Source: Bacteroidia bacterium (GTDB lineage Bacteria; Bacteroidota; Ignavibacteria; SZUA-365). From it: a stretch of DNA of 64,000 bases. The stretch's first letter is position 1. Each line of letters begins with the position of its first letter. The translations under genes and the position numbers were made by a program. Positions 875 through 55,668 of the stretch are shown here, piece after piece. The notes beneath the pieces are model-generated. The model saw nothing but the letters and a program-made list of their open reading frames with translations, was not told where the DNA came from and did not search any database. The stretch covers positions 1,193,131 to 1,257,130 of the forward strand of contig JAOSJT010000001.1 of NCBI GenBank assembly GCA_027493955.1, read 5' to 3'.

Positions 875-2044
875 TTATCGCAGCAGCAGCATCCTGTCTG
901 TTGTGCGTCCGTTTCCCATGAGACGAAGCAGATACACGCCCGCCGCCACGCGGCGGCCGGTTTGTGACGTCAGATCCCAGTTCAGCACTGTGCCTGATTC
1001 AATACCATCAAAGCGCTTCAGCTCGCGGCCAAGGAGATCGGTGACGAGCAGCAGCGCGGGAGGGGCGTCCGTATTGGTGACGTGTATGCTCACGTGATCG
1101 GCTGCGGGATTGGGCCAGACGCTGAGCGCCGCGCTGTTGGGGACGGACGCGAGCTCGACCCCGGCGATATCCGAGTACGCGGTACTGCCGTCGAAGTCGA
1201 GCTGTCGGAGTCGGTACTTCAACCGCTCCCCGGCGGGCAGTGATGCGGCGGTGACGTCCGTGTACTCGTAGTCCGCGCCCGCATGCTCAGCTGCGCGGGC
1301 GCGGATGAAATGCAGGTCGTCCCAGCTTTCGCTCTCTCCAGCAATCTGCCGTTGCACGGTGAAGCCGGCGTTTTGCACCTCGGCCTCCGTGCGCCAACGC
1401 AGGTGGACCTGATTATCCGGCAGCGGCGTTGCAGTGAAAGAACGAAAGGTGACAGGCCAGTAGTCAACGCCGTTTATGCGGGCATGATAGAGATAGGAGA
1501 TGCGCCCAAGATTGTTCATGTAATACCGCCCCAGTCCCTCGGCATAGCGGTAGTGGAAATGAAACGCCCCTCCCCCCCATACTCTTCGGGGCCGCTTGAA
1601 GTTGACATACAGCTCCCCTATGACGTCGGATGGCAGCGAGTCAATTCTCCAGGGTGCCATTGGAAATGTGTCCCCGCATCGAAAATACAGACTGTCGTTA
1701 CGGATGGAGAGGTTCAATTCCTCATATTCCGTCGTATCCGGGCAATACGCGGAAGCGTTGTGCGGGCCGCGATACCCGTACACGACGCCTGTCGTGCTGT
1801 CCACGCGCAGTGTGGTATTGTTGCTGAACACGAAGTAGCGTTTCCCGTTCGGGAAAAGCGAATCCTTGACGATGCGCACCTCATTCCAGCCTGAAAAGCG
1901 CTCTCCTTGCGGCGTCCAGTCGTAGACCTTGTACAGCCAGATATTGCCGTTGTGCAGAGGTAAATAGGAAAGATCGGTGGCGGTGGGCTGGGCTACCGCC
2001 GTTGTCGCGGCGAACAGCAGGATGAGACGGATCGGAATGTTCAT
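875..2044 (-). CDS. Secreted protein with T9SS type-A C-terminal sorting domain
   Basis: 390 codons from ATG at 2044. This start is preferred because AGGAGG lies about 9 nt upstream and the protein then begins with a clean signal peptide (MNIPIRLILLFAATTAVAQ). A longer in-frame upstream extension has no signal peptide. The middle (about 20-190) is a WYF-rich domain of unknown function (LPLHNGNIWLYKVYDW). Residues 200-300 resemble a fibronectin-III/beta-sandwich segment (TPLPDNQVHLRWRTEAEVQNAGF), the common spacer before sorting domains. The last 80 residues form a T9SS type-A sorting domain (VWPNPAADHVSI ... LGRELKRF ... GVYLLRL). The protein is therefore predicted to be exported by Sec, carried across the outer membrane by T9SS and anchored or released. 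Substrate or role is not recognisable. Confidence 0.85.
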   Translation of the reverse strand: MNIPIRLILLFAATTAVAQPTATDLSYLPLHNGNIWLYKVYDWTPQGERFSGWNEVRIVKDSLFPNGKRYFVFSNNTTLRVDSTTGVVYGYRGPHNASAYCPDTTEYEELNLSIRNDSLYFRCGDTFPMAPWRIDSLPSDVIGELYVNFKRPRRVWGGGAFHFHYRYAEGLGRYYMNNLGRISYLYHARINGVDYWPVTFRSFTATPLPDNQVHLRWRTEAEVQNAGFTVQRQIAGESESWDDLHFIRARAAEHAGADYEYTDVTAASLPAGERLKYRLRQLDFDGSTAYSDIAGVELASVPNSAALSVWPNPAADHVSIHVTNTDAPPALLLVTDLLGRELKRFDGIESGTVLNWDLTSQTGRRVAAGVYLLRLMGNGRTTDRMLLLR

Positions 2045-2448: not shown

Positions 2449-2480
2449 AAAAAAATCCCCCATCGGAAGACGGGGGAAAA
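2449..2480 (-). terminator. Rho-independent terminator of the multiheme cytochrome/porin operon
   Basis: A G5/C5 stem (2457-2461 with 2472-2476) extends inward with a GNRA-like loop. On the minus strand it is followed by a run of seven T residues (complement of 2449-2455). It lies about 25 bases past the stop codon of the 7-heme lipoprotein gene. Confidence 0.8.
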
Positions 2481-2502: not shown

Positions 2503-3330
2503 TTACCAGTCGGTGCGCTCCTGGCCGAAGACCTCGAGCTTGCCGTTGATGTGCTTCGCCTGTATCAACACACCGTTGTCATAGGCATTCGCGTGACAGC
2601 CGGTACAGTTCGTTACCGGGGAGTGCGGCGGTTTCGGCAACGGACTTCCGGTTGCGGGATCGCCGTGGCAGCTTCCGCACTTCGCCTGATCCGCGCCCTT
2701 CCATGCAACAGTGGCGTTGTTGCCGTTGGTGAAATTTCCGTGGCAATAGGTATTGGAGCAGGTTCCTGCGGCGGCATCATACGTCGGGGTCCCTGTCGTG
2801 CCTTTGGTTTGAATAGCGGCAAAGGCGTTGTTGAACATCACCTCAGCCTTACCCGGCGTGGTCTTGTCGATGTGGACGGGATCGCTGAAATTGGCCGGGA
2901 GGTCGTGGCAATCCGAACAAGCGACAGTCACCGCGGACAGCGTGCCGCCTTCAAGATGCAGCTTGTGGGCGTTGTACCACTGCGGATAGGCCTTTTTGGT
3001 CTGTGAATCTCCATGACAGAGATAGCAGGCCTCGGGACCTCCGTCGGCGGTAACATGGCAACCGCTGGCGTTACAGGACTGCCCGGTAAGACCACCGGCG
3101 TAATCGGGACCATGGCAGGTGCGGCAGGAGGAGATGTCCCAGCCGAGACGGTTGCGAATGTCCTTGCCGTGGAAATTGTCCGCGGTAAACACACCGTAGC
3201 CGTTGCCATGCGCCCCGTACAGCACGGGCTCGCCCGGGAGATCGGCCGGATCCTTGAGTTCACTCGAGCATGCCGCGAAGAGCAGCACCGAGACGAACAG
3301 CACAGAGAGAATCGGAGTGAGTCTTTTCAT
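2503..3330 (-). CDS. Seven-heme c-type cytochrome lipoprotein (CxxxxCH/CxxCH family)
   Basis: 275 aa. An N-terminal lipoprotein signal (MKRLTPILSVLFVSVLLFAAC, lipid cysteine at residue 21) is followed by seven heme-attachment motifs: CRTCH (69), CNASGCH (86), CYLCH (102), CSDCH (138), CSNTYCH (191), CGSCH (218) and CTGCH (242). Two of them have the expanded CxxxxCH spacing, and the fifth plus sixth (C-x4-CH, a W-K-G stretch, then CxxCHGDP) match the repeat known from Geobacter multiheme cytochromes. It is the last gene of a three-gene unit: its ATG overlaps the stop of the 11-heme gene (ATGA), and a terminator follows. Inference: it is the outer-surface, lipid-anchored terminal cytochrome of a porin-cytochrome conduit. 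It could instead face the periplasm. Confidence 0.88.
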   Translation of the reverse strand: MKRLTPILSVLFVSVLLFAACSSELKDPADLPGEPVLYGAHGNGYGVFTADNFHGKDIRNRLGWDISSCRTCHGPDYAGGLTGQSCNASGCHVTADGGPEACYLCHGDSQTKKAYPQWYNAHKLHLEGGTLSAVTVACSDCHDLPANFSDPVHIDKTTPGKAEVMFNNAFAAIQTKGTTGTPTYDAAAGTCSNTYCHGNFTNGNNATVAWKGADQAKCGSCHGDPATGSPLPKPPHSPVTNCTGCHANAYDNGVLIQAKHINGKLEVFGQERTDW

Positions 3331-4412
3331 CGCATACCTCCAGTCACGACTCCGGTATTATGGCAGGTGGCGCAAATGGGATCGCCGCCGTCAAGGTTGT
3401 GGCAGGTCGCGCAGCTTTCCATGTCCATTTTCGCGAGTTTGCCGTGTCGGTTCATGGCGCTGCCACCGCCGAGCGAAACGAAGCCCGCGAGCTGATGCGA
3501 TTGCGGAACAATGCGCATGCCGGAGGCATCGTGACCGTTCTGATGGCAGGGCTGGCAGAAGCTTTCGGGCTCATGACAGGTTTCGCAGCGGCTGGACTTC
3601 GCGCGCGCATCGAAACCGTGCGTGTAGCGATAGGTCAGCGGATGTGCTTTCTGGACGCTCAACACGTCGGGACGATCCATTTTCTCGCCTCTGGGCGAAG
3701 CGGGATTGTAGAAGCGATCCGCCGCGACGCCCGACGGCACGTCGTTCGTCGGCGTGTGGCATTCCTGACAGAAGCTTTGGGAGTGACAGCTTGCACAGTC
3801 GCGCGAAGCTTCACCGTTCATCGCCATTTTGCCGTGATTGGCGATGAAATCCGCGGTCATATGATTGTGCGGATACAGCCCGGCCAGCGTCGTGTGACAG
3901 GATTCGCAGCGGTTGCTTGCCGGAATCACTTTCGCGATGTCTTCGCTGCCGCGCAGGATGGGTGCGGTTGCATCGGCATCGTTGTGGCAGCGTGAGCAGA
4001 TGTCCATGGACGGATACGCGGACTCCTCATCGGCGACGATGCCGCCGTGACAGACGCCGCACGCTTGTTCCATTTCGGCATGCTGCTTGTGCGAGAAAAT
4101 GAGTCGGCGGTCTTTTACCTGGAGGACCTGCGCCGCAAGATCCGCGCTCTCGTCCAGCGACCAGTACCCGCGCACGTCGGCATCCTCATGGCAGCCGATG
4201 CACGTCTCGGGAGTCGGCATCAGATTGTCGCCGGCGGCTTCGCTTTCGGCCGCATTGTGGCAGGCACTGCATTCAGCCAGGTCTTTGTGAATGGCATGGG
4301 AGAATACCACTCCCCTGTCGCCGGCGACGACGCCGGAGGGAGAGGTGGTCAGTACCGCGCCGATTACCGAAGCGGTAAGCAGCAGGGCGAGGAAGATGTA
4401 GGTTCGTTTCAT
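3327..4412 (-). CDS. Eleven-heme periplasmic c-type cytochrome
   Basis: 361 aa from ATG at 4412, chosen because GGAGGAAG lies just upstream and the protein then starts with a signal peptide (MKRTYIFLALLLTASVIGAVL). Eleven CxxCH motifs are visible: CSACH, CIGCH, CGVCH, CSRCH, CESCH, CASCH, CQECH, CETCH, CQPCH, CATCH and CATCH. Many are preceded by distant F/S-H-x-x-H histidines (VFSHAIHKD, IFSHKQHAEM) that can act as distal axial ligands, as in cytochrome c3/c7-type multiheme wires. There is no lipobox, so it is probably a soluble periplasmic electron carrier. It lies 10 bases downstream of the porin gene and overlaps the next cytochrome gene by ATGA, so the three are very likely co-translated. 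Confidence 0.9.
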   Translation of the reverse strand: MKRTYIFLALLLTASVIGAVLTTSPSGVVAGDRGVVFSHAIHKDLAECSACHNAAESEAAGDNLMPTPETCIGCHEDADVRGYWSLDESADLAAQVLQVKDRRLIFSHKQHAEMEQACGVCHGGIVADEESAYPSMDICSRCHNDADATAPILRGSEDIAKVIPASNRCESCHTTLAGLYPHNHMTADFIANHGKMAMNGEASRDCASCHSQSFCQECHTPTNDVPSGVAADRFYNPASPRGEKMDRPDVLSVQKAHPLTYRYTHGFDARAKSSRCETCHEPESFCQPCHQNGHDASGMRIVPQSHQLAGFVSLGGGSAMNRHGKLAKMDMESCATCHNLDGGDPICATCHNTGVVTGGMR

Positions 4413-4422
4413 GGTCTTCCTC

Positions 4423-5706
4423 CTAATCCCAAAGCCCGAGCGCTTCGGAGAACCAGTAACTGACTCTGGCGAAGGCACGCATGTCTGATTCGTAAATTTT
4501 GTTGGTCATGTACTGTCCCTGTACGTCGAAAGAGAGCATTTTCCAAGGACGGACGGTTGCGCCCACGACACCGACCCAGGTCGAAGTCTTGTCCAGGTTC
4601 TCTCCGAGCGCATAGCTGCTGTACACGGCACCTACATGCGGCACGAGCATGCCCTGCATGAGCGGATAGGTGAATTGCAGATTGAAACCGTCGAGATCAC
4701 CGTCGTAGCTGACGTCCTTGGTGTACATGATGGAGGCGTACTTGTTGGCCGCGCCGAGAGAGACGCGCATGGCGTTGTCATCATCGTACATCACGGTGCT
4801 GACACGGCCGAGCAGAGTCAGTCGCGGATGGATGCGATAGTCCACGCCGAGGGCCACTTCCTGGTTCGCGCTCGCTTCGAGCAGCGCGAAATAAGAATTG
4901 TACGCCAGAACGGGCTCGCGATGAGCGAAGTTGAGACTCAGGCCCAGTGTGGGCAGAGCCTGGTACGTGGCGGCGACTTCGGCGCGTGAGGTGCGTTCGA
5001 AATTGAAATCGTAATCGAAGCGACCGTACAGCCACATGCGTCCGCTGGAATGCGCGACGTTGACGCTGCCGTACTGATTGGCGCGGGAGCCGTAGTCCAT
5101 GAGCGTCGGGGTAAGATTCATCTGCTCATCGGGGCGCCAGGTCCAGAACAGTTCTGCCTCGCGGTGGCGGTTCATGTAGCTGAGTCCGATCTTGGTATCC
5201 TCGATGAGATACAGCAACAATTGACCACCGACTTGCCAGTTCTCGTCGATGTTGTGGAAGAAATCCGGCTTTTGCGCGACCGGTGCGAGCCCGCCGCCGT
5301 ATGCGACGATTTCGACACCGTCCGTTGGCCGAATGTTGAGAGCGGCACCGTCGATGGTGCCGTAGTTGACGCCGGCGAACACCGGCTGGCGGCCGAGTTT
5401 AAGGTCGACCATGTCAAAGACATTCTTCACGCGCAGGTAGGCGTTGAAGAGACGGAGTGCGGGATCGTTGTGCATTTCATTGGAGAAATCCGTCGATCCT
5501 TGCAGATACGTGTGGAAGGAAACGTCGGAGGTACCGACGTTGAGCTGGATGTTTTCATAGGCACGGAGTTGTGACGTTGACGTGCCGTTGACATCCTGTC
5601 GTTCCCACCCGTAGGCTGATGTCACGAGCCGGCCGTTGATCGTCTGCGCATGCAGCGACCCGGCCAAAACGATCATGAACACCAGAAGGCTGTACACATG
5701 CTTCAT
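4423..5706 (-). CDS. Outer-membrane beta-barrel porin, partner of the multiheme cytochromes
   Basis: 427 aa with a signal peptide (MKHVYSLLVFMIVLAGSLHAQ) and an AGAGGGA ribosome-binding site. The mature protein is built of alternating-hydrophobicity strands with aromatic girdles (AYGWERQ, YLQGSTDFSN, LKLGRQPVFAGVNYGTIDG, LWTWRPDEQ, GSVNVAHSSGRMWLYGRFDYDF), as expected for a trans-membrane barrel. The last strand ends near FARVSYWF. The R-Q-x-V/F ... Y-G-T-I-D-G-A pattern resembles alginate/porin-like barrels, so a general porin is the alternative. Its place at the head of an operon with a periplasmic 11-heme cytochrome and a lipid-anchored 7-heme cytochrome suggests the sheath of a porin-cytochrome electron conduit. 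This is functional inference from context, since no homology to MtrB/OmbB can be verified here. Confidence 0.8.
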   Translation of the reverse strand: MKHVYSLLVFMIVLAGSLHAQTINGRLVTSAYGWERQDVNGTSTSQLRAYENIQLNVGTSDVSFHTYLQGSTDFSNEMHNDPALRLFNAYLRVKNVFDMVDLKLGRQPVFAGVNYGTIDGAALNIRPTDGVEIVAYGGGLAPVAQKPDFFHNIDENWQVGGQLLLYLIEDTKIGLSYMNRHREAELFWTWRPDEQMNLTPTLMDYGSRANQYGSVNVAHSSGRMWLYGRFDYDFNFERTSRAEVAATYQALPTLGLSLNFAHREPVLAYNSYFALLEASANQEVALGVDYRIHPRLTLLGRVSTVMYDDDNAMRVSLGAANKYASIMYTKDVSYDGDLDGFNLQFTYPLMQGMLVPHVGAVYSSYALGENLDKTSTWVGVVGATVRPWKMLSFDVQGQYMTNKIYESDMRAFARVSYWFSEALGLWD

Positions 5707-5821: not shown

Positions 5822-5851
5822 AAAAACCGGGCGGGCAATGCCGCCCGGTTT
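5822..5851 (-). terminator. Rho-independent terminator after the c554-like cytochrome gene
   Basis: A perfect 10-bp stem (5825-5834 pairing with 5841-5850) has a 6-nt loop, followed on the minus strand by a T-run (complement of 5822-5826). It lies 20 bases beyond the stop codon of the tetraheme cytochrome gene and separates it from the porin-cytochrome operon, so the two can be expressed independently. Confidence 0.85.
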
Positions 5852-5871: not shown

Positions 5872-6393
5872 TTACTTGCCGGAAGGATGGGCGACCTTTT
5901 TCCAGGCCTCAGCGAACTTCAGCGGACGATAGGTCGGGCTCTTTTCGTTGTGGCAGGTCTTGCACTGCTTTTCGGCGCTGCCGTCGGCGACTTTCGGGAG
6001 CTGGAGACCCAACTTGACACCTTCTTCGACGCTCTTCGCATGCTTGTTCTTGTACTCGCTGCCCGCGCCGTGGCAGGATTCACATCCCACGCCCTCGGCG
6101 GCAAATTTCTTGTCGGTCACGTGGCAGCTCAGGCACTCCGGTGTTTCAGCGGCTTTGGTCTTGAAACCCTTCTCTGTGGCAATCTTGTCCGCTTCGGCAC
6201 TTTGAAGGGTCTTGAATGCGCTGGCGTGCGGCGATTTTTCCCAATGCTTGTAGGATTCGCCGCCCATTTTCGCGTTGCTGTGGCAGGCCTTGCAGGTCTT
6301 CGCGCCACCATTTGTGGGTCCGGTATTGCTGGTGAACGCCGACACCGCCATGAACATGACGGCGAGTGCGATGAAGGTTGCTGCGGTTTTCAT
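5872..6393 (-). CDS. Tetraheme cytochrome c554-family protein
   Basis: 173 aa from ATG at 6393. A GTG six bases upstream is in frame, but the GAGGTG sequence that includes it is better read as the ribosome-binding site. A signal peptide ends near AFTSN. Four CxxCH motifs occur: CKACH (SNAKMGGESYKHW follows), CLSCH, CESCH (GVGCESCHGAGSEY) and CKTCH near the C-terminus. The pattern CxxCH ... W...H...A...L ... CLSCH ... GVxCExCHG is that of the cytochrome c554/c-prime family seen in many FCB genomes. It is a periplasmic electron carrier whose redox partner is unknown. It sits between nuoN and the porin-cytochrome operon, with its own terminator. Confidence 0.88.
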   Translation of the reverse strand: MKTAATFIALAVMFMAVSAFTSNTGPTNGGAKTCKACHSNAKMGGESYKHWEKSPHASAFKTLQSAEADKIATEKGFKTKAAETPECLSCHVTDKKFAAEGVGCESCHGAGSEYKNKHAKSVEEGVKLGLQLPKVADGSAEKQCKTCHNEKSPTYRPLKFAEAWKKVAHPSGK

Positions 6394-6571: not shown

Positions 6572-8086
<1,515 letters not shown>

Positions 8087-8123
8087 GAGTCGTACTCTCG
8101 CTGTAAGCTCGTTCGGTATTCGA

Positions 8124-9704
8124 TCAGAATGCGCTCATCAGTACCTGGCCGGCACTGTTGTTGACGAAGTCCACAAGGTGTCCGAGTGACGTGCTCATCC
8201 AGTTCAATGCCGGAGACGGATACACGCCCAACGCGATGATGATAATCGCGAGCGGAAGCAGGGTGAATACTTCACGCCCGTTGACATCCGGCATCACGTT
8301 TTCCCACTTCTCCGGTAGTGTCCCCATGAACACGCGCTGGAAGGTCCAGAGCATATAGCCCGCACCCAGCACGATACCGAGCGTGGAGAGTATTGTCCAC
8401 AGTTTGTTGGTCTGGAAAGCACCGAGGAAGACAAAGGCTTCGCTGACGAAACCGCTCATGGACGGCAGGCCAATGGCCGCGAAAAACGCTATGACCGTGA
8501 AGAAGGAATACACGGGCATCTTGTTGTAAAGGCCGCCGAATTCGTTGAGCCCTCTCGTGTGGGCGCGGTCGTAGATGACGCCCACCAAGAGGAAGAGCAT
8601 TGCCGTTATGGTACCGTGATTGAACATCTGGAAAACGGCGCCGGTCATGCCCTGCACGTTGAGCGCCGCCATGCCCAGAAGCACATAGCCCATGTGCGAA
8701 ACCGAGGAATACGCGATCAGCTTCTTGAAATCCGTCTGCGCCATGGCACAGAGCGCACCGTACACGATATTGACGAAGCCCAGAATCATCATCGGTATCT
8801 GGAAGTACAGCGTCATCTCCGGGAAAATCGGAAAACTGATGCGCAGCAGACCGTACGTGCCCATTTTCAGAAGCACACCCGCCAGAATGACGGAAATGGC
8901 CGTCGGTGCCTCGACGTGTGCGTCGGGGAGCCAGGTATGGAAGGGGAAAATCGGCACCTTGATCGCGAAACCGATGAACAAGCCGATGAAGGCAAGCATG
9001 CGCGCCGTACTTCCCACAGTGGCGAACACGCCCTGCGTCACATTCGCGGGATCCATCATCGCGAGCATATTGAACGTGTGCACGCCCGTGGTCGGATCCA
9101 CGGTGCTGAAATACAGGCCGATCATCACCAGCAGCAGCAGCACCGAACCCGCGAGCGTGTAGATGAAGAACTTGATGGCCGCGTACTCGCGTCGGGGTCC
9201 GCCCCAGATGCCGATAAGAAAGTACATCGGCAGCAGCATCAGTTCCCAGAACACGTAGAACAGGAACATGTCGATGGCGCAAAACACGCCCATCATACCC
9301 GTATCCAGCAGCAGGAACATCACGAAATAACCCTTGACGGACTTCGTGATACTGAAGGAGGAAAAGGTGGCGATGAAGCTGATCAATGCCGTCAGCAAGA
9401 CCATGGGCATGGACAATCCGTCAATGCCGAGGAAATACTCGATTCGGATTTCGCCGAACCAGGGTGTCTCCGGGATGACTATCCATGGCAGACGTTCGAC
9501 GAACTGCATGGTGGCGATTTCGGTAATACCGACCTTGCTGGTGTCGAAATTCATCCAGATAAGGATGGCCAACACTACCTGTAACCCGGTCATGATCGCG
9601 GCAGTGATCTGAATGCTGCGGGTCTTTTCCTTCGGGAGGAAGAGAATGATGATCATGCCGAGTACCGGCAGGAAGGTGATCAGTGTAAGGATGGGGAATT
9701 GCAT
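8124..9704 (-). CDS. nuoM: NADH-quinone oxidoreductase subunit M
   Basis: 526 aa from ATG at 9704, with GGAGG four to five bases upstream. An in-frame TTG at 9707 is too close to that site. It is a 14-helix antiporter-like subunit with diagnostic stretches: LGIDGLSMPMVLLTA, FYVFWELMLLPMYFLIG (pump-site Glu), AIKVPIFPFHTWLPDAHVEAPT and KKLIAYSSVSHMGYVLLG. It forms one of the three proton channels of complex I between NuoN and NuoL. Spacing to nuoN is 37 bases and to nuoL 48 bases, consistent with one transcript. Confidence 0.97.
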   Translation of the reverse strand: MQFPILTLITFLPVLGMIIILFLPKEKTRSIQITAAIMTGLQVVLAILIWMNFDTSKVGITEIATMQFVERLPWIVIPETPWFGEIRIEYFLGIDGLSMPMVLLTALISFIATFSSFSITKSVKGYFVMFLLLDTGMMGVFCAIDMFLFYVFWELMLLPMYFLIGIWGGPRREYAAIKFFIYTLAGSVLLLLVMIGLYFSTVDPTTGVHTFNMLAMMDPANVTQGVFATVGSTARMLAFIGLFIGFAIKVPIFPFHTWLPDAHVEAPTAISVILAGVLLKMGTYGLLRISFPIFPEMTLYFQIPMMILGFVNIVYGALCAMAQTDFKKLIAYSSVSHMGYVLLGMAALNVQGMTGAVFQMFNHGTITAMLFLLVGVIYDRAHTRGLNEFGGLYNKMPVYSFFTVIAFFAAIGLPSMSGFVSEAFVFLGAFQTNKLWTILSTLGIVLGAGYMLWTFQRVFMGTLPEKWENVMPDVNGREVFTLLPLAIIIIALGVYPSPALNWMSTSLGHLVDFVNNSAGQVLMSAF

Positions 9705-9752
9705 CAATCCTCCAACAGTGAGCTCGTATAATGAATCAAATTCGTTCGTCTA

Positions 9753-11960
9753 TTAGCGGAACATGTAGAACAGCACTACCACGCCGACGAGCACGAAGGC
9801 GATGTAGGTCTGAATACGTCCGGTTTGTGTCTTTTTGAACATGATGCCGAAAAAGCCGACGACGTATGCGGTGAGATTGACGCCGCCGTCGACGACCCAT
9901 TTGTCGAACAGTCCGCTGATGCGCGACTGCAGTTGTGTTACGTACGCAGCGCCATTCACCGCTCCGTCCACCACCCAGGTGTCGAACCAGGCCATCATGC
10001 GTGCGGTAAGGTGAACGCCGGGTACGACGATCCATTTCTCATAGATCTCGTCGAAATACCATTTGTTCAGCAGGAAGGTGTGCAACGGTCGGAAACGATC
10101 CGCCATGCGATCGGGATCCACCATGCGACGGCGGTACATGGCGAAGGCGAACAAAATGCCCAGACCCGCCACGATGAGGGAAGTGATCATCGCCGGTGTA
10201 TGCGATTCGTGTACCGCATGCTCCAGTACCTCCTGTGCGGGATTGCCCTGCGGCACGCTTGCCGGGGCGGCATGCGTGTGATCGGTGTGGCCCGGTGGTG
10301 TGGCATGCGCGTTATCGCCGGCATGCGCGTCCGCCAGCGGATGCCACTCCCCTGCCGTCACCGTAACGGGGGTTTTAATCCCCTGCACGAACCAGCCGCT
10401 GGGTCCGGACAACGGATTCCACGAGTAGAAGAACCACAACGACAGCGACGCGAGCACGATGATGGGAATTTTCATCGTCATCGGCGACTCGTGTATATGC
10501 GCAAACACATCGGGTCGCTTGGCATCGCCCAGGAAGGTCAGGATCACGAGCCGGAACATGTAAAACGCCGTCATGGCTGCGACCAGGAAGCCGATCCAGG
10601 GTATGATCGCTGCGATGTCGCCCCGTAGGCCGCCGAACGCCCATGCGCCGGCCAAAATCTCATCCTTGCTCAGGAAGCCGGAGAACAAGGGTACGCCCGA
10701 AATGGCGAGCGTCGCCGCGAGGAAGGTATAAAAGGTGACGGGCATCTTTTTCGCCAGTCCGCCCATATTCCGGATGTCCTGCGGATCGGTGTCGTGATCG
10801 TGCAGGTGATGCAGGCTGTGATGCATGGCGTGTATGACCGAACCGGAGCCGAGGAACAGGCAGGCCTTGAACATGGCATGGGTCACAAGATGGAAGAAGC
10901 CGGCCGTGTACGCGCCGACGCCCAGGGCCATGATCATATAGCCAAGCTGACTGACGGTGGAATAGGCGAGGACTTTCTTGATGTCGTTCTGCACCAGGGC
11001 GATGGTCGCCGCAACGAACGCTGTGATCGTACCGACGATGGCGATAACCAGCAGCGCCTCGCCCGACAGCATGGGAAACACGCGCGCAACCAGATACACT
11101 CCTGCTGCGACCATGGTCGCGGCATGAATGAGCGCGCTCACGGGCGTCGGACCCTCCATCGCGTCGGGAAGCCAGGTGTGCAGAGGAAATTGCGCGCTCT
11201 TCCCTACCGCACCCATGAAGATGAGTATACCCGCCGCGGTGAGCCAGACTTCCGAGCCGAAAGGCAAATTGCCCGCGGCGATGGCGGCGAAAATCTCGTC
11301 GAAACGGAAAGTGCCATAGCTGGCGAAAATGATGAGTATACCGATCCACATCCCGATGTCGCCCACGCGATTCACCAGGAAAGCCTTGGTCCCGGCGTAT
11401 CCCGGCATGGGCTTTTCGTACCAGAAACCGATGAGAAGATAGGAACTCAGTCCCACCAATTCCCATGCCGCGTACATCATCAGGAGGTTGTTCGTTATCA
11501 CGATGCCCAGCATGGAGAAGGCGAACACCCCGAGATAGGCGAAATAACGGTGATACTTCGGATCGCCCTGCATGTAGCCGATGGAGAACAGATGCACCAG
11601 CGCGGTGATGAGCATGACGACGACGAGCATCACGGCGACGATCTTGTCGATCATGATGCCCAGTTCGATGCGCAACGGCACATGGGCGCCGAACACGTTC
11701 ATCGTCGTGTTGAAGTCCACCCACGTAAAGGACAGTTGCACCGGTGCTTCCGGAAAGCCCGGTATGGCCGCTGCCGGAGGAAGATTGAACGTGCCGATCA
11801 TCACCACGAAGGCGAGCGCCAGGCCGATAAACATCAGCGTGGTTGCTATCGTGTCCCCTTTCCGCGGCAGACGCTTGCCGAACGCAAGCAGCAGCGCAAA
11901 GGATGCGAGCGGGATGAACAGAACGACCAGTGAGAGAGTGAGCAGTGTTTGTGCCGTCAT
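9753..11960 (-). CDS. nuoL: NADH-quinone oxidoreductase subunit L
   Basis: 735 aa, longer than the usual ~610-660. The antiporter core is clear: LMMYAAWELVGLSSYLLIGFWYEKP, KAFLVNRVGDIG, GKSAQFPLHTWLPDAMEGPTPVSALIHAATMVAAG and KKVLAYSTVSQLGYM. The C-terminal part carries the transverse-helix region. The extra length includes a loop at roughly residues 540-590 rich in His, Ala and Pro (DAHAGDNAHATPPGHTDH), not part of the canonical subunit, followed by helices repeating the word WVVDGAVN/WVVDGGVN. It starts 45 bases after the OmpA/TSP3 gene that interrupts the operon. Confidence 0.96.
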   Translation of the reverse strand: MTAQTLLTLSLVVLFIPLASFALLLAFGKRLPRKGDTIATTLMFIGLALAFVVMIGTFNLPPAAAIPGFPEAPVQLSFTWVDFNTTMNVFGAHVPLRIELGIMIDKIVAVMLVVVMLITALVHLFSIGYMQGDPKYHRYFAYLGVFAFSMLGIVITNNLLMMYAAWELVGLSSYLLIGFWYEKPMPGYAGTKAFLVNRVGDIGMWIGILIIFASYGTFRFDEIFAAIAAGNLPFGSEVWLTAAGILIFMGAVGKSAQFPLHTWLPDAMEGPTPVSALIHAATMVAAGVYLVARVFPMLSGEALLVIAIVGTITAFVAATIALVQNDIKKVLAYSTVSQLGYMIMALGVGAYTAGFFHLVTHAMFKACLFLGSGSVIHAMHHSLHHLHDHDTDPQDIRNMGGLAKKMPVTFYTFLAATLAISGVPLFSGFLSKDEILAGAWAFGGLRGDIAAIIPWIGFLVAAMTAFYMFRLVILTFLGDAKRPDVFAHIHESPMTMKIPIIVLASLSLWFFYSWNPLSGPSGWFVQGIKTPVTVTAGEWHPLADAHAGDNAHATPPGHTDHTHAAPASVPQGNPAQEVLEHAVHESHTPAMITSLIVAGLGILFAFAMYRRRMVDPDRMADRFRPLHTFLLNKWYFDEIYEKWIVVPGVHLTARMMAWFDTWVVDGAVNGAAYVTQLQSRISGLFDKWVVDGGVNLTAYVVGFFGIMFKKTQTGRIQTYIAFVLVGVVVLFYMFR

Positions 11961-48167: not shown

Positions 48168-49343
48168 TCAGCTGTGGTAGTGCAGACTTTCGACCAGTGT
48201 CGGATCCTGCACAGGTACGATCTGCTTCCTGGTCAGTCCTTTCAGGGTAATGAGCAAAAACAGGGCGACAGCGGCCGCGAGCGGCGCGACTTCCCACAGA
48301 CCCACGGACGGAGCGTCGGGCATGAACGGCGGCGCGATCATCCAGAACAGATCGATCCAATGTCCGATGAGTATGATGACGCTCACATTGAGCAGCAGGC
48401 CTTCAGCACGCTTTGCCCTGGCGGAGAGTAAGGCGACAAAAGGCAGCAGCCAATTGAACACGACATTGAGAATAGTGAACGTAAGCCAACCGCCCTGCTG
48501 CCGTGAGAGATAATAGCCGGTTTCCTCCGGGATATTGGAGTACCAGATGAGCATATACTGACTGAACCAAATGTACATCCAGAAGGTGCTGAAGGCGAAC
48601 ATCAGTTTCCCGAGGTCATGCAAATGATCGGGCCGAATGAGATCGCCGAACACCCCGCGGCGCTTGAGGCCGATCAGCAGAGCGGTGAGGGCCGCGGTGC
48701 CGGTCAGAAGAATACCCGAAATGTGATAGACGCCGAAAATGGTACTGAACCAATGCGCTTCCAGCGACATGATCCAATCCGTGGACGCCAGCCAGATCGT
48801 CAATGCGACAAGAACGAGAAAGAGCGCCGATATGCGCATATTCCTGTCCGTCAGCCGCTCATCGCCGGTGCGGTCCTGCAGCTCGGAATTTCGTCGCAAT
48901 GCCGCGGTGAAACCGATCCAGATCACAAAGAACACCACAATGCGTCCAACGAAAAACGGGACATTGAGCCAGGGTGCCTTGGAGGCGATGAGATGATCCT
49001 GCGCGAGTACGCTTGTGTGACTCCATTCGTAGAGCGTGGAGATCCCGAATGCCGTCAGCAGCATGAGAGCGAAACTCACCGGCAGCGAGCGCGTCATCGC
49101 TTCGGGTACGCGGCGGAACACCGTACTCCAGCCCGCGCGGGTGATAAAGGTCAGCGCGATAAAGATGCCCCCCGCCAGCGCCAGGCCCACGATGTAGTAA
49201 TTCGCCAGCAGGATGGCCGGCCAGATGCGCACCGGAGCGAGAAGCAGTCCCGCCGCGCTGCCCAGTGCGCCGAGCGCGATCACGAGCACAAGATTGCGCA
49301 GCAGCGCCGGGCGAATGGTGTAGGTCGTATGTTCCGCGGTCAT
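48168..49343 (-). CDS. actF: Alternative complex III subunit ActF (membrane)
   Basis: 391 aa with about ten membrane helices and no cofactor motif. It is one of the two large NrfD-related or derived integral subunits of the quinol:cytochrome c/electron acceptor oxidoreductase (ACIII). Typical stretches are GWSTVFRRVPEAMTRSLPV, STDWIMSLEAHWFSTIFGVYHISG, FSTFWMYIWFSQYMLIWYSNIPEETGYYL and LNVVFNWLLPF. It is the last gene of the act set; its start overlaps the actE stop (ATGA). No cytochrome oxidase gene follows. Confidence 0.93.
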   Translation of the reverse strand: MTAEHTTYTIRPALLRNLVLVIALGALGSAAGLLLAPVRIWPAILLANYYIVGLALAGGIFIALTFITRAGWSTVFRRVPEAMTRSLPVSFALMLLTAFGISTLYEWSHTSVLAQDHLIASKAPWLNVPFFVGRIVVFFVIWIGFTAALRRNSELQDRTGDERLTDRNMRISALFLVLVALTIWLASTDWIMSLEAHWFSTIFGVYHISGILLTGTAALTALLIGLKRRGVFGDLIRPDHLHDLGKLMFAFSTFWMYIWFSQYMLIWYSNIPEETGYYLSRQQGGWLTFTILNVVFNWLLPFVALLSARAKRAEGLLLNVSVIILIGHWIDLFWMIAPPFMPDAPSVGLWEVAPLAAAVALFLLITLKGLTRKQIVPVQDPTLVESLHYHS

Positions 49344-49924
49344 TGCATACCTCCTGTCGTCTGCCCGGCCGTCTGTTGCATGGAACGAATGTGGAGAATT
49401 GACCTCCGGATATCCGCCGGCGTGATTTGTGAGCGATACTGCGGCATATTGCCCCGACCGTCGGCGATGATGCTGTACAGCGCGCTGTCACTGAGGCGCA
49501 GCGCATTTTCAGCGAGCAGCGACGGCGGCGGCGGATAGCCGCGTTTCGCCACTTCTCCGTCTCCGGCCCCGGCAGCTCCGTGACAAGGCCGGCAGAAAAT
49601 GTCATACACCTCCCGTCCGCGCGGCAAAGCAGCGCTCAGCCGTTGCTGCGCGCTGCTGTCGGTCGACGACAGGGCCTCGGCGGGAAGCACGCCCGGCGTC
49701 GTTTCTTCCCGCGCGACGCGTGTGCCCGGTACCGGATTCGGACTTCTGCGTCGCATTTCTGCCACCCAGCGCTCGGTCTGTCCCTCGACAGGAACGGAAT
49801 ACACCATACCAGGGAGGAATTCCAGATTGCGCTTCGTCCAGACGGTCTCGATGGACATGGTCAGAATCACGACAATGGCGATGAGCAGCGCGAGCAGAAT
49901 ATGATGAAAACGCAGTGTCTTCAT
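49340..49924 (-). CDS. actE: Alternative complex III subunit ActE (monoheme cytochrome c)
   Basis: 194 aa from ATG at 49924, overlapping the actD stop by ATGA. An N-terminal membrane anchor (HILLALLIAIVVILTMSI) is followed by a periplasmic cytochrome c domain with one CRPCH motif (about 127-131) and a distal methionine candidate in GRGNMPQY. It carries electrons from the ActA/ActB side to a soluble acceptor. It sits between actD and actF, the conserved ACIII order. Confidence 0.93.
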   Translation of the reverse strand: MKTLRFHHILLALLIAIVVILTMSIETVWTKRNLEFLPGMVYSVPVEGQTERWVAEMRRRSPNPVPGTRVAREETTPGVLPAEALSSTDSSAQQRLSAALPRGREVYDIFCRPCHGAAGAGDGEVAKRGYPPPPSLLAENALRLSDSALYSIIADGRGNMPQYRSQITPADIRRSILHIRSMQQTAGQTTGGMQ

Positions 49925-50469
49925 GAGAGCACCTCCACGCGTTCCTCTATCACCGAAGCGTGATGCGCACGGCACAGCGCCTCGATGGCGCGAACGTCAA
50001 ACGCGGCATTGTCCTGATGCAGCAGTAACCCGAAGCCATCGTCGGTAACGCGCTGATGCACCACTGCCGCCTTGCGTCCGGGCCAGAGCCGCGAGCGCAG
50101 CAGGAACGTGGCCACAGTGCCGAGCCCGGCGAAGAGCACTGTGATCTCGAACGTCACCGGCACGAAGGCTGGTACGGACGCCAGTGGCTTGCCACCGACG
50201 TTCAGCGGCCAGCTCCCGGCGGAGGTCCAGACCTGAAACCAGAGTTTGGCGGCTGCGCCCGACAGGCCGAAAAGCAGACAAACGAGAGGAAGCCGCGACG
50301 GACGCTGCCCCAACGCTTTGTCCAGGCCATGGACCGCATAAGGAGTGAAGGATTCGAGAATGGTGATGCCGCGCGCGCGCAGCGCTTTCGCGGCGGCGAG
50401 AATATCGTGCTCGTTGTCGAACACCGCCAGAAGCACGCGTCGGGTTGAATCTGCGATCGGGGGGGTCAT
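49921..50469 (-). CDS. actD: Alternative complex III subunit ActD (DUF3341)
   Basis: 182 aa from ATG at 50469. A ferredoxin-like cytoplasmic N-terminal half (LLAVFDNEHDILAAAKALRARGITILESFTPYAVHGLD) leads into two membrane helices (LPLVCLLFGLSGAAAKLWFQVW; VPAFVPVTFEITVLFAGLGTVATFLL). This is the DUF3341 architecture, without cofactors. It is a structural subunit in contact with ActC and ActF. Fourteen bases separate it from actC. Confidence 0.92.
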   Translation of the reverse strand: MTPPIADSTRRVLLAVFDNEHDILAAAKALRARGITILESFTPYAVHGLDKALGQRPSRLPLVCLLFGLSGAAAKLWFQVWTSAGSWPLNVGGKPLASVPAFVPVTFEITVLFAGLGTVATFLLRSRLWPGRKAAVVHQRVTDDGFGLLLHQDNAAFDVRAIEALCRAHHASVIEERVEVLS

Positions 50470-50483
50470 AAGCTTTCTCACTT

Positions 50484-51941
50484 TCACTGTACGCTTGAAT
50501 GCACCGCGTCCTTTTTCTCCGTGCGTGTCGCGCCCGGAGCCGCCGCTTTGCCGTTCTTTCTCACCAGCGCTCCCGCCGCATCGAGAACGGTGCGGCCGTA
50601 CCCCAGCACGCTTTTCACCTCCGCCACCGCTATCATGGGCAGCAGGCGCGCGAAGATCAGGAAGAGCGCGAAAAACAGACCGAAGGAACCGACCATGGTG
50701 CCGATTTCTATCCACGTGGGTGTGTACGCAGACCAGCTGCCGGGCAGGAAATCACGGGTGAGCGACGTCATGATGATCACGAAACGCTCGAACCACATAC
50801 CCACGTTGATGACGATGGAAAGAATGAACACCGTCACCACCGAGCGGCGTAACCTGCGTATCCAGAAAAACTGCGGCGCGATCACGTTGCACGACACCAT
50901 GATCCAGTACGCCCAGGCGTAGGGACCGAACATGCGGTTGGCAAATGCGAATTGTTCGTATTCATTGCCGGAATACCAGGCCGTGAACAACTCCGTCAGA
51001 TACGCGAAGCCCACGATACTGCCCGTTGCGATGATGATCTTGGTCATGGACTCGATGTGATGCAGCGTGATGTACTCTTCGAAATGCAGCACCTTGCGTG
51101 TGATGATCATCAGCGTGAGCACCATCGCGAAGCCGGAAAACACCGCGCCCGCAACGAAGTACGGCGGGAAAATGGTCGTATGCCAGCCCGGTATCACGGA
51201 CGTCGCGAAGTCCCAGCTCACGATAGTATGCACCGACACCACCAGCGGTGTCGCGAGGCCGGCGAGCAGCAGATACACCGATTCGTAGCGTATCCAATGC
51301 CGACCGGAGCCATTCCACCCGAGACTGAAAATGCCCGCCAGTTTTCTGCGCAGCTTGCTCTTCGCGCGGTCGCGCAGAGTTGCCAGATCCGGTATCAAGC
51401 CCACATACCAGAACACCAGGGAAATCGTCAGGTAGGTGCTGATCGCGAACATGTCCCAGATCAGCGGCGAGCGGAAATTCACCCACAGCGGACCACGGAA
51501 ATTCGGATACGGCACGAACCAGAACGCGAGCCACGGCCGTCCCATGTGAATGATGGGATAGATGCCCGCGCAGATAACGGCGATGATGGTCATGGCCTCG
51601 GCGGAACGATTGACGGACGTGCGCCATTTCTGGCGGAACAGGAAGAGAATCGCCGAGATCAGCGTGCCCGCGTGACCGATGCCGATCCAAAACACGAAGT
51701 TCGTAATGTCGAACGCCCAGCCCACGGTGTTGTTCAGACCCCAGGTACCTACGCCCGTCATGATCTGATATACTGTCGTCACCACACCCGCGGCGACCAT
51801 GGTCATGGCCATGGTAAATGCCAGCCACCACAGCGGCCCCGCCTTCGCATCCATCGGCGCGCAGATGTCGTCGGTGACCTGGCGCAGGGATTTATCGCCC
51901 AGGACCAGCGGTGTGCGGAGTTTCGAATACACTTCAGCCAT
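50484..51941 (-). CDS. actC: Alternative complex III subunit ActC (NrfD/PsrC-like)
   Basis: 485 aa from ATG at 51941, with AGGAG seven bases upstream; the in-frame ATG at 51947 is too close to that site. About ten helices of the NrfD/PsrC family (WWLAFTMAMTMVAAGVVTTVYQIMTGVGTWGLNNTVGWAFDITNFVFWIGIGHAGTLISAIL). The quinol-binding site of ACIII is placed in this subunit. Other family marks are FSLGWNGSGRHW and HTIVSWDFATSVIPGWHTTIFPPYFVAGAVFSG. Its 5' end overlaps the actB stop by eight bases. Confidence 0.95.
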   Translation of the reverse strand: MAEVYSKLRTPLVLGDKSLRQVTDDICAPMDAKAGPLWWLAFTMAMTMVAAGVVTTVYQIMTGVGTWGLNNTVGWAFDITNFVFWIGIGHAGTLISAILFLFRQKWRTSVNRSAEAMTIIAVICAGIYPIIHMGRPWLAFWFVPYPNFRGPLWVNFRSPLIWDMFAISTYLTISLVFWYVGLIPDLATLRDRAKSKLRRKLAGIFSLGWNGSGRHWIRYESVYLLLAGLATPLVVSVHTIVSWDFATSVIPGWHTTIFPPYFVAGAVFSGFAMVLTLMIITRKVLHFEEYITLHHIESMTKIIIATGSIVGFAYLTELFTAWYSGNEYEQFAFANRMFGPYAWAYWIMVSCNVIAPQFFWIRRLRRSVVTVFILSIVINVGMWFERFVIIMTSLTRDFLPGSWSAYTPTWIEIGTMVGSFGLFFALFLIFARLLPMIAVAEVKSVLGYGRTVLDAAGALVRKNGKAAAPGATRTEKKDAVHSSVQ

Positions 51942-54900
51942 GGCCATTCTCCTTGACGGGTGTCGCGGCATGTCGTACCTGCATCAGATAACCGACCGAT
52001 GGTCTGACGCCCAGTTCTTCGAGGACGCGATAATGCCGGGGATTGCGCATTTCCTTCGCAACGGCGCTTTCACGGTCGTTCATATCGCCGAAACGGATTG
52101 CACGGGTGGGACAGGACTGCATGCAGGCGGGTTGTATTTCGCCGTCGGCGGGTACGCGTCCCTCCCCTTTTGCCACGATTTTCGCTTCCTGAATGCGCTG
52201 CACACAGAAGGAGCATTTCTCCATCACGCCGCGGGAACGCACGGTGACATCGGGATTGAGGACAAGATTTTCCTCTTCCTCCCGTTCGTAATTGAACCAA
52301 TTGAATCGGCGGACCTTATACGGGCAGTTGTTCGAGCAGTAGCGCGTGCCCACGCAGCGATTGTACACCTGCTGATTGAGTCCTTCGCCGGAATGCACGG
52401 TGGCGAGAACGGGACATACCGTTTCGCAGGGCGCATTGTCGCAGTGATGGCAGAGCATGGGTTGATGCGCCACGCGCAGATCGCCATCGGTGTCGTGGAA
52501 ATAGTAGCGATCAATGCGCAGCCAGTGCATATCGCGATTGCGGCGCACCTCGTCCTTGCCGACGACGGGGATGTTGTTTTCCACCTGGCAACCGATCACG
52601 CAGGCGGAGCAGCCCGTGCAGGCGTTCACGTCAATAGTCATGCCCCAGTGATGCCCGTTGTACGCGTGCTCTTTCCACATACTGTGCAGCTCATGCGCCG
52701 GGCCATGGGGAAGCTTTCCCGCCGCAAGCTGCGCGAGAGTAATCTCCTGCACGCAGGGTCTCTGTTTGCCGCTGCCGTCCCCTTCCGGTCCGGGAACTGC
52801 GAGATACTGATACTCCTGCGCCAGCGCGAGTTGCGTGTGTTTTCCGCTCGGGACCGCCGACACATGCAGTCCGTCGTCGCGCAGTACGCCATCCACAAAA
52901 ACCCGCACGCCGCTCACGCGTACGCCCACACCGCCGTCGGCGCCGGTCGTGGGCCGACCGAACCACCAGGATGCCTGCGGCTTCGCGAAACGCCGTCCCA
53001 CAAGTGTGCCGTAGCCCATCGCCACGGCGAGTGTACCGTCCGCCTGCCCCTCCTGAATGAGCACGGGCAGCTCTATCGCCTGTCCACCCTCATTTTTTCC
53101 GCCGATGCGGAGCAAATCACCCTGTTGCAGCTTGTACTTCCTGGCCGTGTTCTTGCTCAGGGACGCGACATTCTCCCAGGAGCATTTCGTGACGGGATCG
53201 GGGAGTTCGAGCAACCAGGCATTGCCACCGGAAGTGCTGTCCGGCATGCCGACACGGGGATGGATGATCAGCTCCAATTCACCGGCGCCCTGTTTCGGCA
53301 TCCGCTGATCGGTTGCTATCATCGTCGAAGAAATTGCCTCCCGAACCGGAAGCGACTCCGTGACCCGTATGCTACCCGTGGCGAGCGTCGCGTTCCACCA
53401 GTCGTCGAAATCTGCTGCGCCGCTTCGCGGGAACACCGCGTCGCGCCAGTACTCGCGTATGAGATCGTAGGCACGCGCAGTGGTTCCGTTCCAGATGTTG
53501 AGGGCCTCAAGTACTGGACGATACTCGTTTGACGGCGGTATCATCGGTTGTGAAAGTGTGAACACACCCGCGACGGGCCGCGCATCGCTCCACTCCTCGA
53601 GGAAATGCGGCGTCGGGCAAACGTAGGCCGCGTACCGCGTTGTTTCGTCGGTGTGCGAAGTGCAATGAATGCTGAGGGGCACGCGCTGCAGCGCATCGCC
53701 CAGTTTCCAGGAATCGGGCGCGTCGTATACAGGATTCACATTGACGGTGATCAGCGCGTCCACGCCGCCGCCATGCATTTCCTGCACGAGGGCGTGAAAC
53801 TGCTCGTCGCTGCCCTGCTTCTGCCGCGACGGGCCGGCGACGTCGATGGTTGTGCCGTAGCTGCCGAGCATGCTGTTGATATGCAGCGCCAAACGTTGCG
53901 ACGCTCTGTCGTTCGTTCCGCAGAGCAGCAGCGCGGCACCGCGCGCCTCCCACAGTTTGTCCGTCAGCAGATCGAGCGTGGCTTCGGGGAGCGGGAGCTT
54001 CGTCCGGGGGGCGGGAACGCTTTGTCCGGCACGCTGCGCGATGCGATGCCGCAGATGCAGCAGCACGGCGTACCGATCCGCACCGCCGAGCGCGATACGG
54101 TAATCGGCTTTCGTCCCGGTCAGCGACATGCGCGCTTCGATGTGCGCATGCCACGACATCTGCGCGTCCTTTCCGTCCAAAGTCCGGCCGGCTATCCACG
54201 CCGCGCTGTATTCGACGGGAGAAATCCAGGTTCCCAGGAAATCCGCATCGAACGACACGATCACGCGCGCCTCGCCGAGAAGGAAGCGCGGCAGCATCCG
54301 TACTCCGAAGGCCTCAGCATGCGCGTCAAGCAGCGCCGACACCGAAAGCGCATCGTACATCACATGCTTCCCGTCCGCAAAACCGGAAAGAAAGGCGTCA
54401 ATGGCGCGCTGCAGCGTGGGACTCGTGATGCTGCCGCTGAGGATGCGCACGCGCGCGGAGGTCTTCCGCAGTCGGTCAAACTCTTTCCCGAGATCGGTAT
54501 CAAGTCGCTCCCAGGTCGTGCGTTCCCCTTTGCGCAAAGGCGCTTTCAGGCGATGACTGTCATACAACGCAAGCAGCGAGGCCTGTCCCGCAGCGCACAG
54601 ACCGCCTTTGGAGACGGGATGCTCCGGCAGTCCTTCGATTTTCACGGGACGGTTGTCCCGGTTGCGCACGAGTATACCGCAGCCCGCGCTGCACGCGGCA
54701 CAAGTACCGGCGTACCACGCCGAGGTACCCGGAGTGACTTCGGGCTCGAGCCTTACGTGAGGAAGCGTCTTGCTGTCGCGGGGTTGCTCGCAACCCACCG
54801 TCAGCGCTGCGAGCGTAAAGCCGGTGAGTTTGAGGAAATCGCGCCGAGGCACGCCGCGAACCTGCTCCTCACCCTCCGCTTCTGCGTGCACGTGGTGAAC

Positions 54901-54945
54901 ATGCTCACGTATTTCGCTTGCTTTGTCTGCTGTGTTCATACGCAT
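51934..54945 (-). CDS. actB: Alternative complex III subunit ActB (fused molybdopterin-like and Fe-S domains)
   Basis: 1003 aa. A twin-arginine signal (VPRRDFLKLTGFTLAALTVGC) precedes a molybdoenzyme-like domain (B1, about 60-730) with a CAACSAGCG iron-sulfur start. In ACIII this domain lacks a metal-pterin cofactor. The C-terminal ferredoxin domain (B2, about 760-1000) holds four cysteine clusters: CTGCSACVIGCQ, CHHCDNAPCETVCP, CVGTRYCSNNCP and CSFCVQRIQEAK ... CMQSCP. It wires electrons from quinol oxidation at ActC to the hemes of ActA and ActE on the periplasmic face. The two domains are fused, as is usual in Bacteroidota-type ACIII. Confidence 0.96.
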   Translation of the reverse strand: MRMNTADKASEIREHVHHVHAEAEGEEQVRGVPRRDFLKLTGFTLAALTVGCEQPRDSKTLPHVRLEPEVTPGTSAWYAGTCAACSAGCGILVRNRDNRPVKIEGLPEHPVSKGGLCAAGQASLLALYDSHRLKAPLRKGERTTWERLDTDLGKEFDRLRKTSARVRILSGSITSPTLQRAIDAFLSGFADGKHVMYDALSVSALLDAHAEAFGVRMLPRFLLGEARVIVSFDADFLGTWISPVEYSAAWIAGRTLDGKDAQMSWHAHIEARMSLTGTKADYRIALGGADRYAVLLHLRHRIAQRAGQSVPAPRTKLPLPEATLDLLTDKLWEARGAALLLCGTNDRASQRLALHINSMLGSYGTTIDVAGPSRQKQGSDEQFHALVQEMHGGGVDALITVNVNPVYDAPDSWKLGDALQRVPLSIHCTSHTDETTRYAAYVCPTPHFLEEWSDARPVAGVFTLSQPMIPPSNEYRPVLEALNIWNGTTARAYDLIREYWRDAVFPRSGAADFDDWWNATLATGSIRVTESLPVREAISSTMIATDQRMPKQGAGELELIIHPRVGMPDSTSGGNAWLLELPDPVTKCSWENVASLSKNTARKYKLQQGDLLRIGGKNEGGQAIELPVLIQEGQADGTLAVAMGYGTLVGRRFAKPQASWWFGRPTTGADGGVGVRVSGVRVFVDGVLRDDGLHVSAVPSGKHTQLALAQEYQYLAVPGPEGDGSGKQRPCVQEITLAQLAAGKLPHGPAHELHSMWKEHAYNGHHWGMTIDVNACTGCSACVIGCQVENNIPVVGKDEVRRNRDMHWLRIDRYYFHDTDGDLRVAHQPMLCHHCDNAPCETVCPVLATVHSGEGLNQQVYNRCVGTRYCSNNCPYKVRRFNWFNYEREEEENLVLNPDVTVRSRGVMEKCSFCVQRIQEAKIVAKGEGRVPADGEIQPACMQSCPTRAIRFGDMNDRESAVAKEMRNPRHYRVLEELGVRPSVGYLMQVRHAATPVKENGHG

Positions 54946-54999
54946 TCGTCATTCTGTGATCGTGTGCCGACGCAGCAGAGCGCGACGGCGCGGTTACTG

Positions 55000-55659: not shown

Positions 55660-55668
55660 CTGCAACAC

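What the first reader, a model, noticed from the sequence alone, without database searches (positions are those of the whole stretch)
2503..5706. Probable porin-cytochrome conduit for electron transfer across the outer membrane
Three tightly packed genes (10-base gap, then ATGA overlap, then a terminator) encode an outer-membrane barrel, an 11-heme periplasmic cytochrome and a 7-heme lipoprotein with Geobacter-type CxxxxCH/CxxCH repeats. Porin plus periplasmic and lipid-anchored multiheme cytochromes is the composition of Pcc/Mtr conduits (OmbB-OmaB-OmcB, MtrB-MtrA-MtrC). The chain lengths, heme counts and gene order differ from the textbook cases, so this may be a distinct conduit type. A c554-like tetraheme cytochrome with its own terminator sits directly upstream.
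Basis: partly seen in the sequence, partly recalled or inferred. Interest (0 to 1): 0.72.

Follow-up and report, generated by a model that had tools for sequence, protein, structure and literature searches.

The report
Ignavibacterial outer-membrane electron conduit operon
Four neighbouring genes most likely build an insulated heme wire through the outer membrane of an Ignavibacteria bacterium, so that it can pass respiratory electrons to minerals outside the cell; the same cassette was already noted in Ignavibacterium album in 2014, and here it proves widespread in the class with a shortened 11-heme version.

Summary
The conduit reading is well supported by inference, not by experiment. The porin models as a confident 22-strand, plug-free barrel. 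Both associated cytochromes have enough extra histidines to ligate every heme, as wires do. The lipoprotein lacks the inner-membrane retention Asp+2. Homologous porins occur, one copy each, in 95 of 149 sampled class genomes and essentially not elsewhere in the phylum; where contigs allow, the order c554-porin-periplasmic cytochrome-lipoprotein is almost always kept. The genome also encodes ImcH-like and CbcL-like quinol oxidases.
It is not a new kind. Shi et al. 2014 (PMC4245776) described IALB_1840-1837 of Ignavibacterium album as a Pcc cluster with the same anatomy (14-heme periplasmic member). The window belongs to one clade that lacks hemes 3, 13 and 14 of that pattern. The porin family has no Pfam or NCBIfam model and is not MtrB/PioB. 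Not shown: threading of the barrel, surface exposure, direction of flow, substrate.

The parts
4423..5706 (-). outer-membrane porin of the conduit, 427 aa, signal peptide, predicted 22-strand plug-free beta-barrel
   Evidence: AlphaFold2 pLDDT 88.7, pTM 0.76; best superpositions are the barrels of 22-strand TonB-dependent receptors, Z about 20; single copy; homologues class-wide
3327..4412 (-). 11-heme periplasmic c-type cytochrome, 361 aa, predicted barrel-inserted wire
   Evidence: 11 CxxCH and 12 other His; signal peptide with VVA|GD-type cleavage site, AxA-type in the family relatives; c7 / ActA-like N-terminal half; 37-member alignment
2503..3330 (-). 7-heme lipoprotein cytochrome (5 CxxCH + 2 CxxxxCH), predicted outer-surface terminal
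   Evidence: TIGR01904 CxxxxCH/CxxCH domain E 4e-15; lipobox LFAAC, +2 Ser; 7 hemes and 7 other His; alignment
5872..6393 (-). c554-like tetraheme periplasmic cytochrome, predicted electron feeder of the conduit
   Evidence: Pfam PF13435 E 3e-12; same position in nearly all relatives; 4 hemes and 4 other His
2456..2477 (-). intrinsic-terminator-like hairpin closing the three-gene unit
5824..5851 (-). intrinsic-terminator-like hairpin after c554
6572..11960 (-). complex I genes nuoN, nuoM, nuoL directly upstream on the same strand; neighbour, not part of the conduit
   Evidence: translations; nuoN/nuoM homologues lie next to the cassette in all 12 sampled genomes of the same family

Best explanation
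The cassette encodes a porin-cytochrome (Pcc) trans-outer-membrane electron conduit of the Ignavibacterium type. Proposed path: menaquinol is oxidised in the inner membrane by ImcH-like and CbcL-like multiheme proteins encoded elsewhere in the genome (G000:C1:2194903-2198853); the c554-like tetraheme cytochrome carries electrons across the periplasm; the 11-heme cytochrome sits in the lumen of the 22-strand barrel and forms the membrane-spanning heme wire; the 7-heme lipoprotein on the outer face receives the electrons and hands them to Fe(III) minerals, electrodes or other extracellular partners. Shown here: gene content, order, conservation, barrel fold (model), His saturation, presence of the quinol-oxidase candidates. 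Inferred: threading of the barrel, surface location, direction and acceptor.
For: Gene cassette conserved in order: 37 of 40 relatives' stretches carry the porin with the periplasmic cytochrome, most with the lipoprotein and c554 too; 63 of 80 named Ignavibacteria contigs have the full c554-porin-periplasmic-lipoprotein order and most of the rest are cut by contig ends. Barrel: confident 22-strand model without plug, amphipathic strands with a polar, Arg-rich and more conserved inward face. MtrB has 26 strands, of which the first four do not touch MtrA (PMC7198977), so 22 strands is plausible for the same job. Hemes: 11 + 7, with 12 and 7 extra His for distal ligation. The periplasmic cytochrome and barrel have near-constant length while the lipoprotein varies up to 28 hemes, the pattern reported for conserved inner and variable outer parts of Geobacter conduits (PMC6148476). 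Own genome has ImcH-like (NapC domain, N-terminal hydrophobic segments, 6 hemes) and CbcL-like (13 hemes + cytochrome b561 domain) genes side by side, and CbcL-like homologues lie directly before c554 in the Melioribacter/Stygiobacter-type loci. Precedent: IALB_1840-1837 (PMC4245776). Melioribacter roseus respires Fe(III) (PMC3534657).
Against: No experiment on this or any ignavibacterial copy was found. The 11-heme protein could not be modelled (pLDDT 56, hemes absent) and no complex could be predicted, so threading is untested. The porin has weak similarity to general porins (Porin_4 below cut-off). Surface exposure of the lipoprotein rests on sequence signals only.
Confidence: 0.86

Rival explanations
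1. Same conduit, opposite use: electrons enter the cell (Fe(II) oxidation, electrode or interspecies electron uptake), with the CbcL-like protein reducing quinone.
For: Pcc/Mtr conduits are used in both directions and CbcL/MtoC-type proteins occur in Fe(II) oxidisers (PMC6295460).
Against: The genome carries an ImcH-like gene, and ImcH homologues are reported only from Fe(III) reducers (PMC6295460); in all 12 sampled family members the cassette follows complex I genes, which fits an oxidative chain.
Confidence: 0.15
2. An ExtI-like oxyanion or metal system: the barrel lets a soluble acceptor into the periplasm and the cytochromes reduce it there.
For: ExtI porin of Geobacter is needed for selenite and tellurite reduction (PMC5877670); the modelled lumen is Arg-rich.
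Against: No match to the NCBIfam Ext selenite/tellurite models for the porin; 22 strands is wider than the usual 14-18-strand solute porins; every heme has a candidate His ligand, leaving no obvious catalytic heme; porin and 11-heme genes are 10 bases apart and stay together across the class.
Confidence: 0.07
3. The cytochromes are a periplasmic electron store or relay to a periplasmic reductase and the porin is an unrelated neighbour.
For: Multiheme c7-type proteins often act in the periplasm (established knowledge).
Against: Porin and periplasmic cytochrome stay adjacent in 37 relatives from 13 families of the class and in nearly all of 80 named contigs.
Confidence: 0.04

Closest known systems
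Pcc cluster IALB_1840-1839-1838-1837 of Ignavibacterium album JCM 16511 (Shi et al. 2014, PMC4245776)
   Same: periplasmic cytochrome, porin, large multiheme periplasmic cytochrome, outer-membrane cytochrome with atypical CX3-15CH motifs, one cluster per genome
   Different: periplasmic wire has 14 hemes and 400 aa there, 11 hemes and 361 aa here; the I. album protein sequences themselves were not retrieved, so identity was judged from the description and from Ignavibacterium sp. relatives
OmbB-OmaB-OmcB of Geobacter sulfurreducens
   Same: porin - periplasmic cytochrome - lipoprotein cytochrome gene order; porin of similar strand number (18-22 predicted for Pcc porins)
MtrAB(C) of Shewanella
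   Same: barrel-sheathed multiheme wire, about one heme difference in the wire
   Different: porin is a 26-strand MtrB/PioB family member; no MtrB/PioB model matches any of 37 porins
ExtABCD / ExtEFG / ExtHIJKL of Geobacter
   Same: functional analogues with 18-21 predicted strands and small lipoprotein cytochromes in some
   Different: different gene sets; no Ext porin model hit

Membership tests
Pcc porin-cytochrome conduit (sensu Shi et al. [quoted passage not shown]
   22-strand model, pLDDT 88.7
Pcc porin-cytochrome conduit (sensu Shi et al. 2014) | adjacent gene for a periplasmic multiheme c-type cytochrome (5-14 hemes) | tested here: met
   11 CxxCH, cleavable signal peptide pattern, 10 bases from porin
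Pcc porin-cytochrome conduit (sensu Shi et al. 2014) | gene for an outer-membrane (lipoprotein) multiheme cytochrome, usually in the cluster | tested here: met
   lipobox, Ser+2, 7 hemes incl. CxxxxCH; the membrane location itself is inferred
Pcc porin-cytochrome conduit (sensu Shi et al. 2014) | complex forms and conducts electrons across the outer membrane | not testable with these tools
   needs reconstitution or mutants
Pcc porin-cytochrome conduit (sensu Shi et al. 2014) | sequence similarity to OmbB/OmaB/OmcB | not tested
   Geobacter sequences were not held; a 2020 study assigned ignavibacterial clusters to an OmbB-like HMM (PMC7399161)
MtrAB/PioAB family | porin matches MtrB/PioB model (TIGR03509, Pfam MtrB_PioB) | tested here: not met
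   no hit among 37 porins in Pfam or NCBIfam
ExtHIJKL selenite/tellurite system | porin matches NCBIfam models of the Ext operon | tested here: not met
   no such NCBIfam hit among 37 porins
TonB-dependent receptor | N-terminal plug domain | tested here: not met
   first barrel strand starts at residue 21, right after the signal peptide; only the barrel size is shared

The most novel reading that the evidence does not exclude
The ignavibacterial conduit is its own barrel family, independent of MtrB and of the Geobacter porins, inherited as a near-core trait of the class together with its c554 feeder and a CbcL-like quinol oxidase, and one lineage has shortened its wire from 14 to 11 hemes while keeping it functional, which would show that heme number in such wires is free to change.
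Probability: 0.45. Interest if true: 0.5.

Novelty: new member of a known kind. Interest (0 to 1): 0.36.

Why it matters
Extracellular respiration in Ignavibacteria is usually argued case by case. A single-copy cassette present in roughly two thirds of sampled class genomes gives one testable locus for the trait, and its natural 14-, 12- and 11-heme versions in an otherwise constant barrel are a ready-made series for asking how many hemes a trans-membrane wire needs.

Tried and rejected
Degenerate scans of genome contigs with A1 and A4 failed for lack of a conserved stretch; a four-member alignment worked. AlphaFold2 of the 11-heme protein was poor, and its Foldseek hits only showed the ActA/c7-like N-terminal part, so no claim is based on that model. 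The porin against PDB sequences found nothing; MtrB did not appear among the listed structural matches, which is not evidence of a different fold. The MtrB/PioB search of the own genome found nothing, but no control genome rang either. Promoter scan was at chance level. Considered and dropped: an enzyme role for the cytochromes (no spare heme without a His ligand); T9SS export of the lipoprotein (no sorting domain).

Full report
OBSERVATION. The porin is 427 aa, the middle gene 361 aa with 11 CxxCH, the last gene 275 aa with 5 CxxCH and 2 CxxxxCH motifs and a lipobox (LFAAC-SSELKD). The c554-like gene upstream has 4 CxxCH and hits Pfam Cytochrome_C554. The order porin - periplasmic - lipoprotein is that of ombB-omaB-omcB.

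CONSERVATION. The porin is single-copy in its genome (5.24 Mb, one contig). Homologues occur in 43 of 61 genomes searched as relatives (own genome included) and in 95 of 149 genomes drawn from the class, one each; in a sample of 296 genomes of the phylum all 42 strong hits are in the same class and one weak, broken hit lies outside. Named contigs identify the class as Ignavibacteria, with Melioribacter, Ignavibacterium, Stygiobacter and the isolate Stygiobacter electus. Neighbourhoods were read in 40 unnamed-genome stretches and 80 named contigs (some genomes are in both sets): 63 of the 80 show c554-porin-periplasmic cytochrome-lipoprotein cytochrome in that order, and most of the rest end at a contig border. 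In all 12 sampled genomes of the window's family the cassette follows nuoN/nuoM.

THE PORIN. No Pfam or NCBIfam porin model describes the family: of 37 members only a few have weak hits to general barrel models (window member Porin_4, 21.8 bits against a cut-off of 27). AlphaFold2 on the 37-member alignment gives a confident barrel (pLDDT 88.7, pTM 0.76) in which I count 22 strands from the DSSP list, with the first strand right after the signal peptide, hence no plug. The best structural matches are the 22-strand barrels of TonB-dependent receptors (Z about 20 over 340-370 residues, rmsd about 4 A); this is a shared barrel size, not kinship. Strand-parity analysis shows an amphipathic barrel with a polar, Arg-rich inward face that is somewhat more conserved than the outward face (entropy 1.65 vs 1.91 bits, one-sided p 0.03). 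Standard barrel geometry gives a backbone radius near 20 A for 22 strands against 23.5 A for 26 (assumed shear numbers). In MtrAB, MtrB has 26 strands and its first four do not touch MtrA, which measures about 80 x 30 x 35 A (PMC7198977); a 22-strand sheath is therefore plausible but tight. This is inference.

THE CYTOCHROMES. Alignment of 37 periplasmic members shows a widespread 14-heme pattern of about 400 aa. Twelve-heme forms lack the two C-terminal hemes and appear in several branches; the 11-heme form lacks these and heme 3 and is one clade with support 1.0 in both the porin and the cytochrome tree. That 14 is ancestral is the simplest reading, not proved. The window protein has 12 non-motif His for 11 hemes, the lipoprotein 7 for 7 and c554 4 for 4, as expected for bis-His electron wires rather than enzymes with an open catalytic heme. 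The N-terminal half resembles c7 / ActA / QrcA modules. The signal peptide ends in VVA-GD, and AxA-type sites are seen in its family relatives. The lipoprotein carries one CxxxxCH heme position conserved in all 32 aligned members and no member has Asp at +2; many have acidic residues at +3 to +7, reminiscent of surface-export signals of Bacteroidota lipoproteins (my knowledge, untested). Its size varies widely between genomes (up to 28 hemes) while barrel and wire do not, which fits an exposed terminal.

ELECTRON SUPPLY. The genome encodes, side by side at G000:C1:2194903-2198853, a NapC-domain protein with six hemes and N-terminal hydrophobic segments (ImcH-like) and a 13-heme protein fused to a cytochrome b561 / FdnI-type domain (CbcL-like). 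CbcL is nine c-hemes plus a di-heme b-type six-helix domain, ImcH has three N-terminal helices and seven hemes, and homologues with 6-10 (ImcH) and 3-23 (CbcL) hemes are reported, Ignavibacteriae included (PMC9129911, PMC6295460). CbcL-like homologues lie immediately upstream of c554 in the Melioribacter/Stygiobacter-type loci. An alternative complex III-like cluster also lies in the window. That these feed the conduit is inference.

KNOWN OR NEW. Shi et al. 2014 list one pcc cluster in Ignavibacterium album: IALB_1840 (periplasmic cytochrome), IALB_1839 (porin), IALB_1838 (400 aa, 14 hemes, the largest then known) and IALB_1837 (outer-membrane cytochrome with atypical motifs), and note that the porin and periplasmic members fall outside their groups (PMC4245776). 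By anatomy that is this cassette. Later work reported ignavibacterial clusters as OmbB-like and found Ignavibacteria on anodes (PMC7399161). Melioribacter roseus grows with Fe(III) (PMC3534657). The window adds an 11-heme version and a view of class-wide distribution; it is a new member of a known kind.

LIMITS. No complex was predicted, no OmbB-family sequence was at hand, the I. album proteins themselves were not retrieved, and nothing here fixes the direction of flow or the acceptor.

Noticed in passing
L198:4315-5808 (G000:C1:3255314-3256807), outside the window: An 8-heme c554-type cytochrome with a C-terminal type IX secretion sorting domain: a candidate T9SS-exported surface cytochrome that could take electrons from the conduit. 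A literature search for multiheme cytochromes together with type IX secretion and extracellular electron transfer found no paper.
   Followed up: partly
window 49340-55668: Alternative complex III-like cluster on the - strand: ActA-like multiheme cytochrome (55000-55668), 1003-aa molybdopterin/FeS protein, NrfD protein, cytochrome c.
   Followed up: partly
window 6572-11960: nuoN-nuoM-nuoL next to the cassette; nuoN/nuoM homologues adjoin it in all 12 sampled family members but were not found next to it in other families of the class.
   Followed up: partly
L099, L126, L150 (lipoprotein genes): The outer lipoprotein is expanded to 12-28 hemes in some relatives.
   Followed up: no
window 875-2044: Protein with a type IX secretion sorting domain downstream of the cassette, same strand, behind the terminator.
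   Followed up: no
L050 (G012, same order): A diverged locus with a weakly similar porin followed by a 7-heme lipoprotein-like cytochrome; may be a different conduit.
   Followed up: no
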